DNA of 64,000 bases, taken from contig NC_049981.1 in NCBI RefSeq assembly GCF_000003815.2, positions 31,523,811-31,587,810 on the forward strand. Direction: 5' to 3'. Below the pieces are notes generated by a model. The model was not told where the DNA came from. It was given only the letters and a program-made list of their open reading frames with translations, and did not search any database. This stretch comes from Branchiostoma floridae. Its lineage: Eukaryota; Chordata; Leptocardii; Amphioxiformes; Branchiostomatidae. This document shows, piece by piece, positions 43,694 to 46,600 of this stretch; the first letter of the stretch is position 1, and each line of letters opens with the position of its first letter. The position numbers and the translations under genes were made by a program.

Positions 43694-46600
43694 CTAAGCG
43701 TTGTTGCGCATGAGGTTGTTGATCCAGTTGGTGTACTCTGAGACGCGCGCGTAGATGCCGGGGAAGTTGGGCTGGGCGCAGCCGTACCCCCATGACGTCA
43801 CGCCCCACAGCGTCCACTTCCCGCCACTCTCGCACACCAGCGGGCCGCCTGAGTCTCCCTGTGAGTCAGAATATATTCGGAGTCATTGTTGAACTAGTAT
43901 AACTGTAATATCCAGCACAAAAATTGGACTAACCCAAATTTTCGTGTCACGTGAGTCACATTATGTAGATAGAACACGTGACTCAGTAAGCAGTGGATCG
44001 TAGGTTGCAGGAAGTCTATGGCGCCCGGCGTCTCTTTTCAGGGATGGTTGTAAAGCTCTGATGTAGATGGCTTCTTTTATCCCACTCGCGAGTCATATTC
44101 GGAGTCATGCGGCCACACTTGGTAGAATTCAGAAGTCAGAATTCACACAGCACCGATATCTATCCCCATTCTTAAGGATCAGGGTTACACACCAGATACC
44201 TTAAGGCCCAGTTGCCATACGATGGCAAATGGAGAGCATTGTTTTGGATAGTTAGTTTGAGATATTCAGCTGTCCTGTTATCCGGTGGTTGGTCCTTTCA
44301 CAGACCGCTTGAAAGGCCTTGCACATGAAAATTGTACAACAGCCTACGATGGATTTAGTACGTATATGCGCCTCGTAAGACTTAGTTGCTATGTGTGACT
44401 GGCGATAGAATGCTGAACTGGTCAAGAGAACCAACACTATTTTCCTCACCTGGCAGGTGTCGACTCCTCCTCTCATGTACCCCGCACAGAACATCTGATT
44501 GGTCAGCTTGTCGCCATAGCCACGGCGGCAGGTGGCCTCGGGCAGGAGAGGGACCTTGGCCTTCATTAGGGTGGCAGGATTGTTGGGGCGATCGGGGTCT
44601 GCGGGAGACATTTCAGATTTAAAAAGTAATCTCGAACCAGCTTAACAGTTAACTAATCTTGGACCGACCCTGATCGAACGCCATATCGAACAAATAGAAC
44701 CATACTATTTCGGAGGTGTTCTAAATAGAACATGATCGAATAAGGGGCGGGGCTTCAGGATCGGTGCTTACCTGTGTTTCCCCAGCCACTGATGTGACAT
44801 CAGGCTAACTGCTCGGTGCTTACCTGTGTTTCTCCAGCCACTGATGTTAACTGCTCGGTGCTTACCTGTGTTTCTCCAGCCACTGATGTTAACTGCTCGG
44901 TGCTTACCTGTGTTTCTCCAGCCACTGATGTTAACTGCTCGGTGCTTACCTGTGTTTCTCCAGCCGCTGATGTTAACTGTTCGGTGCTTACCTGTGTTTC
45001 CCCAGCCGCTGATGTTAACTGCTCGGTGCTTACCTGTGTTTCTCCAGCCGCTGATGTTAACTGTTCGGTGCTTACCTGTGTTTCCCCAGCCGCTGATGTT
45101 AACTGTTCGGTGCTTACCTGTGTTTCCCCAGCCGCTGATGTTAACTGTTCGGTGCTTACCTGTGTTTCCCCAGCCGCTGATGTTAACTGTTCGGTGCTTA
45201 CCTGTGTTTCCCCAGCCGCTGATGTGACACACGTGTCCGTCCGGGAACTGTTCCGCTGAGTCGGGCAGACACGCCAGGGTCACGAACTGGTTGGTCTCCG
45301 CGCACCTCCCGTTCTGCCGCCTCAGCTTCAGCAGCGCGATGTCGTTATCCTGAAGACGATGAAAAAAGTCAGGACATGATTAAAATCAGTCGAGCTTGGC
45401 AATGGCGTTATCCTAAAGACGATAAAAAAACGTCAGGACCTGGTTAACATATTAACAGTATTAAAGTAAAGTATTTACATATGTACAGACAGATCTATGC
45501 AAAATAGTCTGTCTGTACATATGTTAATACTTTACGTTTTGTGACCGCATCTGGACCGTGAGCAGCGACACCTGTCCTGCATGCAGTACAATGTGAACCA
45601 GTCAGAATTGCCATGAAGAAGGTGACAGATGGTCACCAAAACGTTGATGAGAATAAAGCATTGGTTGTGTAAAAAGAGTCTCTTTATTCAGTGACGTACC
45701 AACCTGATGAAACTATTCACGGAGTATTAACAGACATTATTGGTCGAGCTAGGCAATATTGTTATCCTTAAGACGATGACAAAAAACGTCAGGACTAGTC
45801 TGTGTGATACAAACTCTGCTATCCAGAGCAGCAACGGGCCCCTCCTTGCAGAGATTGTGCTATCTTGCCCTCAGCTGGGGGAACTGTTACAGAAAGTAGC
45901 AACACCAATGGAGGCCTACCTGGGCGGGCTGCTATAAGCGATATTCAACCAGGCTACATCAGGACATGATTAACATCAGTCGAGCTAGGCAATGTTGTTA
46001 TCCTAAAAGCGATATTAAAGATACGCCAGGATTACAGTTTAAGGCAGTTAGTTCCATAGACGTTTTAAGGCCGTACAGTCAGTGGGCTGTTATTCACTGT
46101 GTCTAGTGTACACTATTGGAAGCCCATCTCTGTCCTTCCACCGCCTCTTATCTGTCCAACCAAAGTCAGGTACCCGAGTGAAGTGAAGAAAGTCATACAA
46201 AGTGTTTCCCAAGAGCGCACTGTTGGTAGTACGACAGGATTCTAACCCAGTACCTCTGGGTTCTGGGTCAAATACCCTGCACTCAACTCAAACATCACCT
46301 CACCTCACCTCACCTATCCCTTGACCTTCTAGTGAGTCGTTGGGGGCACCATGAGAATCCGTTGCACCACCCTCCTCCATCTAGCTCTGTCCTCTGCCAC
46401 ATGCATTGCTTCAGCTAGGCTTAAGCCAGTCCACTCTCTTATGTTATCTTATGTTAACTCAAACATAGAGGGTTCACAAACTCACGGTTGAGTCGGCGTC
46501 GTAGAGCGGGTGGGACCAGGACCTCTCCACGTCGAACCGCTGCTCCGTGCCCTCGTCCACCCGGTTGTTGTGTTCCCCGAGAACAACTGAGTACGAACTG

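What the first reader, a model, noticed from the sequence alone, without database searches (positions are those of the whole stretch)
44761..45235. Eleven tandem copies of a coding exon end with its splice donor inside the trypsin domain
Ten extra 42-bp units follow the real 3' edge of the exon coding SGWGNT, each with an apparently intact GTAAGC donor and an open frame (14 codons per unit). If any downstream donor is used, the protease would gain 14-residue steps in a surface loop. The period is exactly divisible by three and the copies are near identical. It could be a splice-length switch, a decoy-donor array, or a neutral minisatellite.
Basis: partly seen in the sequence, partly recalled or inferred. 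Interest (0 to 1): 0.85.

Follow-up and report, generated by a model that had tools for sequence, protein, structure and literature searches.

The report
Lancelet protease exon with decoy repeats
In a lancelet-like genome a short tandem repeat has copied the end of a protease exon together with its splice signal about ten times into the next intron; this is a known amphioxus oddity, most likely spliced out without effect, and the same genome holds more such arrays.

Summary
The array is real: eleven identical CAG|GTAAGC donors on the minus strand, at 45201 and then nine exact 42-bp steps to 44823. The eleventh (44771) follows a 52-bp step and is out of frame. It starts at the donor of exon D of a trypsin domain. 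Splicing at 45201 gives a loop that aligns without a gap to HGF activator and trypsin; two nearby paralogues have one donor at the same place and no array. Unit variants do not look constrained as protein. Best reading: a "mirage", the amphioxus minisatellite that duplicates an exon-intron boundary (PMC3087553, PMC3902484), removed with the intron. Probably the same gene carries an older array at an SRCR-like exon end that ignores frame. Genome-wide, triple CAGGTAAG arrays give 1586 matches against 10 for the reversed word, but CAGGTCAG gives 424 and its reverse 167, so part of the excess may be a repeat-prone CAGG motif. One acceptor word shows no clear excess (42 against 32). Of twelve other arrays fetched, seven start behind an exon with a recognised relative; in five the match runs to the last codon before the first donor. 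No RNA evidence was available. Verdict: new member of a known kind; splice-length switch unlikely.

The parts
45202..45349 (-). Exon D of the trypsin domain (DNDIALLKL...HISGWGNT), 148 bp; ends at the donor whose first intron base is 45201
44806..45225 (-). 42-bp tandem array, 10 copies: last 24 nt of exon D, then GTAAGC and 12 more nt of intron (18 in all); the first copy is the true exon end
44761..44805 (-). Terminal, divergent copy after a 52-bp step; donor at 44771, out of frame
44450..44598 (-). Next exon E ([11 protein letters not shown]...VDTCQ); the intron from 45201 to 44599 is 603 bp
45399..45450 (-). Decayed local copy of the exon D acceptor boundary (AG|GATAACGCC at 45412), 44 of 52 identical
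45753..45795 (-). Second decayed copy of the exon D acceptor boundary (AG|GATAACAAT at 45766), 36 of 43 identical
62151..62285 (-). SRCR-like exon upstream, probably of the same gene ([12 protein letters not shown]), donor at 62150
   Evidence: domain named from its motif; not run in Pfam
60868..62210 (-). Second, older boundary array: 9 copies (steps of 138, then mostly about 116-121 bp, one gap of 411) of the SRCR exon end with donor; GTAAGT in 8 of 9, GTAAAT in 1

Best explanation
A 'mirage' minisatellite. A tandem duplication took the last 24 or more bases of exon D, its AG|GTAAGC donor and some intron, and later expanded to ten 42-bp copies, with one older divergent copy left at the intron end. 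The donor at 45201 is the original exon end and is used; the copies lie in the intron and are removed with it. Shown: anatomy, copy number, one locus found, two paralogues without an array, a gapless family-length product from donor 45201, a second frame-free array upstream, and more arrays of this build in the genome. Inferred: that 45201 is the donor used, that the copies do nothing, and the order of events.
For: Product from donor 45201 aligns without a gap at the junction to HGF activator 2r0l and trypsin 1a0j. Two nearby paralogues (58% and 44% identical in exon D) have one donor at the homologous place, and no array lies behind it. Three sites vary inside the units of the ten regular copies: one synonymous, two that change residues; GWG becomes GWR in 5 of 9 extra in-frame units. 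Exact periods 42 and 41 are about equally common (6 and 7 arrays). The SRCR array keeps no frame (offsets mod 3 = 0,2,1,2,1,1,1,2) and reads into a stop at its first donor. Published mirages (Adh3, globins, TnC) are reported not to disturb splicing (passages of PMC3087553, and PMC3902484). Of 12 other arrays fetched, 7 start behind an exon with a recognised relative; in the 10 measured the unit has the same build, exon end + donor + intron start.
Against: No RNA data. All 11 donor 9-mers are identical and about equally paired in predicted local structure (0.007 to 0.05 unpaired), so the sequence gives no reason why 45201 should win. Nine downstream donors keep the frame. A human tandem array of AGGT sites (UBC) is spliced in unit steps (PMC10809524). 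In lancelet PGBD5 one gene model took boundary repeats as an exon, though without transcript support (PMC3902484).
Confidence: 0.85

Rival explanations
1. Splice-length switch: several donors are used, giving proteases with 0 to 9 extra 14-residue steps ([14 protein letters not shown]) in the loop after GWG (the autolysis loop by recalled chymotrypsin numbering), each adding an N-I-S sequon.
For: Nine downstream donors keep the frame (translated without a stop for the first and the last of them), and donor sequence and predicted pairing are equal.
Against: Family-length loop only with 45201; unit variants not protein-like; period 42 not favoured over 41; the tenth step breaks the frame; the SRCR array keeps no frame.
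Confidence: 0.05
2. Dual-specific AG|GT sites as in human UBC: each unit edge acts as donor or acceptor, so whole units are spliced out in blocks.
For: Every unit carries CAG|GTAAGC; UBC is shown to do this and human introns matching a repeat length are in 8.4-fold excess (PMC10809524).
Against: The would-be acceptors have a pyrimidine fraction of 0.31 at -20 to -5, against 0.56 to 0.81 in 13 acceptors assigned in this gene region. A single-unit intron of 42 bases would be very short (recalled).
Confidence: 0.04
3. Decoy or spare-donor array: the repeated U1 sites help the first donor to be recognised or buffer its loss, and intact donors are kept by selection.
For: In the old SRCR array the donor hexamer is intact in 8 of 9 copies, with 1 inferred change over 6 columns against a mean of 7.3 per six-column window. 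The donor word gives the most triple arrays of the three words searched with variable gaps.
Against: The word TTTTGG in the same unit is as well conserved, and the conserved core reaches well beyond the donor; copies are related, so columns are not independent.
Confidence: 0.05
4. Motif hot spot: CAGG/CAGGT words breed minisatellites here whether or not they are splice sites, and exon ends are hit because they carry the word.
For: CAGGTCAG, a poor donor, also gives 424 matches (reverse 167), though some of those may be weak donors too. Exon boundaries of this gene are not richer in local copies than shifted positions: 5 of 24 against a mean of 3.7, reached in 32% of shifts. A dispersed period-51 family adds to the donor count.
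Against: CAGGTAAG exceeds CAGGTCAG 3.7-fold, and 7 of 12 fetched arrays start behind an exon with a recognised relative. This rival concerns the origin and is compatible with the best explanation, so its odds are not to be added to the others.
Confidence: 0.3

Closest known systems
Amphioxus 'mirage' minisatellites (Adh3, globin BflGb6 and BflGb9, PGBD5, troponin C)
   Same: Tandem repeat of an exon-intron boundary, units with AG/GT signals, variable unit length (10-72 bp in Adh3, about 150-160 bp in globins), seen at 5' and 3' boundaries (PMC3087553 and PMC3902484: passages and one section; the Adh3 paper itself is not held).
   Different: New gene and new loci; exact period of 42 with frame kept for nine steps; near-identical copies; two donor-side arrays in what is probably one gene.
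Human UBC and other tandem-repeat genes with dual-specific splice sites
   Same: Tandem AGGT sites at a fixed interval that is a multiple of three (PMC10809524, abstract and two sections).
   Different: In UBC the units are coding and are used as donor or acceptor; here they extend into an intron, have poor pyrimidine tracts, and no use is shown.
Human tandem repeats at exon-intron boundaries in segmental duplications
   Same: Minisatellites of about 30-bp units that change exon or intron length and can activate cryptic sites (PMC2812944, passages).
   Different: Human, within recent paralogues; here a lancelet-like genome, with no array in two nearby paralogues.
Intron gain by tandem duplication of AGGT sequence
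   Same: Duplication of AG|GT-bearing exon sequence creates paired sites (search listing of PMC4974935 and PMC3443670; model in PMC3087553).
   Different: Here an existing donor was copied into an existing intron; no new intron is shown.

Membership tests
Amphioxus mirage minisatellite | Tandem repeat that spans an exon-intron boundary | tested here: met
   Unit = last 24 nt of exon D + 18 nt of intron beginning GTAAGC; exon identity by Pfam and PDB alignment
Amphioxus mirage minisatellite | Many units carry AG/GT splice signals | tested here: met
   11 of 11 units carry CAG|GTAAGC
Amphioxus mirage minisatellite | Located in a cephalochordate gene | tested here: inconclusive
   The assembly is unnamed: 513,431,437 bases, 431 contigs. 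That this fits B. floridae is recalled; the boundary arrays agree with it
Amphioxus mirage minisatellite | Regular splicing is not disturbed | not testable with these tools
   No RNA data; only the family-length product with donor 45201
Amphioxus mirage minisatellite | Copy number unstable between haplotypes or cells | not testable with these tools
   One assembly only; the array was found at one place
Dual-specific splice-site array (UBC type) | AGGT in each unit at a constant interval that is a multiple of three | tested here: met
   Nine steps of 42; the tenth step, 52, departs from it
Dual-specific splice-site array (UBC type) | Sites work as acceptors as well as donors | not testable with these tools
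   Needs RNA; pyrimidine fraction 0.31 against 0.56-0.81 in 13 assigned acceptors speaks against it

The most novel reading that the evidence does not exclude
Exon ends with their donors are preferred birthplaces of minisatellites in this genome, and acceptor edges are not. A simple rule would make this so: because the 5'-most donor is kept, donor-side copies fall silently into the intron, whereas acceptor-side copies would be read into the messenger RNA and are purged. Such donor-anchored arrays would number well over a hundred (roughly 130 to 190 of period 28 to 58, extrapolated from the 8 to 11 clusters in the 100 rows, or first 29 Mb of C1, listed) and form a standing reservoir of spare donors from which new exon ends can arise.
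Probability: 0.35. Interest if true: 0.65.

Novelty: new member of a known kind. Interest (0 to 1): 0.45.

Why it matters
The array itself is one more mirage. Its value is as a clean test object: eleven identical donors in series, ten of them in frame, in a conserved protease domain, with array-free paralogues nearby. It would show how the splicing machinery picks one of many equal donors. The genome-wide counts suggest that mirages are common, not curiosities, and that donor and acceptor sides may differ; the papers seen here describe single genes, and one of them only suspects a general phenomenon. If the asymmetry holds, it bears on how exon ends move and how introns arise.

Tried and rejected
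Frame as evidence of function: rejected. Exact periods 41 and 42 give 7 and 6 arrays (two of the seven, both on C13, are copies of one sequence), and first steps in 12 arrays are divisible by three in 3 of 12 (four of the 12 were found by the period-41 search, so this count is biased).

Donor strength or RNA structure singling out 45201: rejected; 9-mers identical, unpaired probability 0.007 to 0.05.

Enrichment of local copies at exon boundaries of this gene: not shown. Of 24 boundaries, 5 score 44 or more, against a mean of 3.7 in 2629 circular shifts, reached or exceeded in 32%. Two of the five belong to one duplicated exon and two to exon D.

TRF sample: in 20 stretches (200,000 bases, 13,091 of them N) 30 arrays were found, none with the strict donor motif, 0.13 expected; in three stretches beyond the window 0 of 7; in the window 1 of 14, 0.06 expected. 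So donor arrays are a minority of all arrays; the motif used there also misses GAA|GTAAGT.

A 160-fold donor excess (1586 against 10): toned down. CAGGTCAG gave 424 and its reverse 167, so control words vary widely; a dispersed period-51 family inflates the donor count; and long arrays count many times (of the 100 rows listed, 42 come from one array and 23 from another). In a 217-kb sample the donor word occurs 8 times and its reverse 14 times, so the reverse word is not simply rarer.

Papers that gave nothing to the point: passages of PMC2206037 and PMC11175523; passages of PMC2632668 mention exon-like copies with splice sites in introns of amphioxus VCBP3, not pursued.

Not answered: the CAGGTGAG pattern, exact period 43, and a protein search for exon D in the whole genome. 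Not examined: the other trypsin-type matches (154 matches in all), apart from the window and two genes. Not run: structure prediction, a tree of the 42-bp units.

Full report
The observation. On the minus strand the window carries eleven copies of CAG|GTAAGC. The first intron base lies at 45201, then at nine steps of exactly 42 bp down to 44823, then after 52 bp at 44771. Tandem Repeats Finder gives 44806-45225, period 42, 10.0 copies, 98% matches, score 749. The finding's 'ten extra 42-bp units' is thus nine plus one irregular copy. Donor 44771 is shifted by 430 bases and out of frame; the nine others keep the frame into the next exon. The open frame is not telling: two of three sense frames and two antisense frames are open through the regular copies.

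The host gene. Six exons on the minus strand (47745 to a stop codon near 43694) make a trypsin domain: Pfam Trypsin 8.1e-77 for the spliced model, nearest solved relatives HGF activator, 1.3e-59, and trypsins. Upstream on the same strand lie kringle exons (Pfam 9.6e-20 and 1.1e-11; others by motif) and SRCR-like exons (motif only). I treat them as one mosaic gene by inference; no transcript shows it. The splice product from 45201 aligns through SGWGNT|DPDRPNN without a gap to both 2r0l and 1a0j. The position corresponds to the autolysis loop by recalled chymotrypsin numbering.

Where it lies. The window is C3:31523811-31587810 of an unnamed assembly of 513,431,437 bases in 431 contigs. That this fits the chromosome assembly of Branchiostoma floridae rests on memory; no call named the organism. 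A DNA search found the array at this place only (that search skips very common words). Two further trypsin genes lie on the same strand within 25 kb beyond the window's right end. Their exon D is 58% and 44% identical, ends at the homologous place with one donor (GTAAGT in both), and TRF shows no array behind it. So the donor at 45201 is most likely the ancestral exon end, and the array is not shared by these two genes; other trypsin genes of the assembly were not examined.

Anatomy and history. Each regular unit holds the last 24 nt of the exon and 18 nt of intron beginning with GTAAGC. Within the units of the ten regular copies three sites vary: one synonymous, two that change residues; a fourth difference, at -25, sets the true exon apart from the copies. 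Glycine of GWG becomes arginine in 5 of 9 extra in-frame units. Copies near the exon match the exon, distal ones share other variants, and the last copy keeps exon-like bases that the middle copies lack. I infer one early duplication, now the terminal copy, then expansion of a shortened unit. The other edge of exon D also has decayed local copies: AG|GATAAC at 45412 (44 of 52 identical) and 45766 (36 of 43).

A second array in the window. Behind the SRCR-like exon donor at 62150 there are eight further copies at 62012, 61896, 61780, 61659, 61543, 61426, 61015 and 60894. They are far more diverged, their offsets follow no frame, and the exon's frame meets a stop at the first donor. GTAAGT is intact in 8 of 9 copies and GTAAAT stands in one. 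By column conservation the donor hexamer ties with TTTTGG for first of 119 six-column windows; by parsimony it has 1 change, and 2 of 117 windows have 1 or none. The conserved core extends beyond the donor on both sides, so I count this as a hint only.

Does exon position matter in this gene? I scored 24 assigned boundaries for local copies within 2 kb. Five score 44 or more; circularly shifted positions give a mean of 3.7, and 32% of 2629 shifts reach five. So boundaries of this gene are not shown to be richer in copies than the rest of a repeat-rich region. This speaks against a boundary-specific process within this gene.

The whole genome. The pattern of three CAGGTAAG with gaps of 20-50 bases has 894 + 692 = 1586 matches, and the pattern read backwards 8 + 2 = 10. 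The acceptor-like word TTTGCAGG gives 32 + 10 = 42 against 11 + 21 = 32. CAGGTCAG, a poor donor, gives 223 + 201 = 424 against 84 + 83 = 167. The donor word is the highest of these three words and their three reverses, but words differ widely, some of the excess may belong to CAGG-rich repeats, one dispersed period-51 family recurs on C1, and long arrays count many times. The 100 rows listed, all on C1, form 11 clusters, three of them of that family (clusters counted from row starts that I retyped). In a 200-kb sample none of 30 arrays had the strict motif. Exact period 42 has 24 matches in 6 arrays, this one included, and exact period 41 has 29 in 7, with 0 controls each: no preference for a multiple of three.

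Are those arrays at exon ends? I fetched 12 of the 18 clusters listed, choosing partly by coding look. In 7 of 12 the first donor lies behind an exon with a recognised relative: cytoplasmic dynein heavy chain (L034, 3.1e-13), dynein heavy chain (L043, 2.1e-6 with the last 25 residues), aldehyde dehydrogenase 1A (L040, 6.8e-16), TRAPPC11 (L041, 3e-13), TMEM237 (L037, Pfam 7.4e-27), dynein D4 (L044, Pfam 1.7e-10) and SPATA7 (L035, Pfam 3.2e-5, below its cut-off). In the first five the match runs to the last whole codon before the donor; in L044 and L035 it stops 11 and 8 residues short. The L034 and L043 peptides had no Pfam match. L033, L038 and L039 show an open frame without a Pfam match (L033 also without a PDB match). 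L036 and L042 are not shown to be coding. In 10 of these 12, and in both window arrays, I measured the unit by ungapped extension: the last 19-66 nt of exon, the donor, and 2-106 nt of intron. In L040 and L035 the first donor, and in L038 the second, were set by eye; in L040 and L035 the first donor is weaker than its copies (GTAAAT, GTATGG).

What is known. The globin paper describes 'mirages', minisatellite-like duplications of exon-intron boundaries in amphioxus globin genes and, by citation, Adh3; [quoted passage not shown] The PGBD5 paper adds PGBD5 and cites TnC (PMC3902484, passages and one section). The founding Adh3 paper is not held. My searches for wider accounts listed no genome-wide survey by title or abstract start; this covers only that open-access library. 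The nearest case with proven use of serial AGGT sites is human UBC (PMC10809524); here the would-be acceptors are pyrimidine-poor, 0.31 against 0.56-0.81 in 13 assigned acceptors.

Mechanism and verdict. Most likely a mirage removed with its intron (0.85). Shown: sequence anatomy, one locus found, two array-free paralogues, family-length product. Inferred: use of 45201, neutrality, order of duplication. A possible reason for the donor side being favoured: if the first donor is kept, copies fall into the intron; at an acceptor, copies would enter the message. This is a proposal, tested only by one acceptor word. Interest 0.45: the locus is a known kind, the genome-wide pattern is the part worth following.

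Noticed in passing
window 6097-8868 (-): Open frame of 923 aa with endonuclease and reverse-transcriptase domains (Pfam RVT_1 1.6e-35), a LINE-type element.
   Followed up: partly
window 16186-19197 (+): 1003-aa open frame with nine TPR_10 stretches, overlapping a 132-bp tandem repeat.
   Followed up: no
window 24769-26913 (-): 714-aa open frame with three LAMP-like luminal stretches (Pfam 1.4e-51); possibly a retrocopy or a single-exon gene.
   Followed up: no
window 48304-48502 and 48991-49192 (-): A cysteine-rich exon (weak chitin-binding match, below cut-off) duplicated at 87.6% identity.
   Followed up: no
window 55149-55445: A (TGAG)n array begins within a few bases of the donor of a kringle exon (55449).
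   Followed up: no
L040 and L035: The first donor of the array is weaker (GTAAAT, GTATGG) than intronic copies behind it, so a copy might have taken over there.
   Followed up: no
L044: The 50-bp unit looks composite: it also carries a stretch from further upstream in the dynein exon, as if a larger duplication had lost its middle.
   Followed up: no
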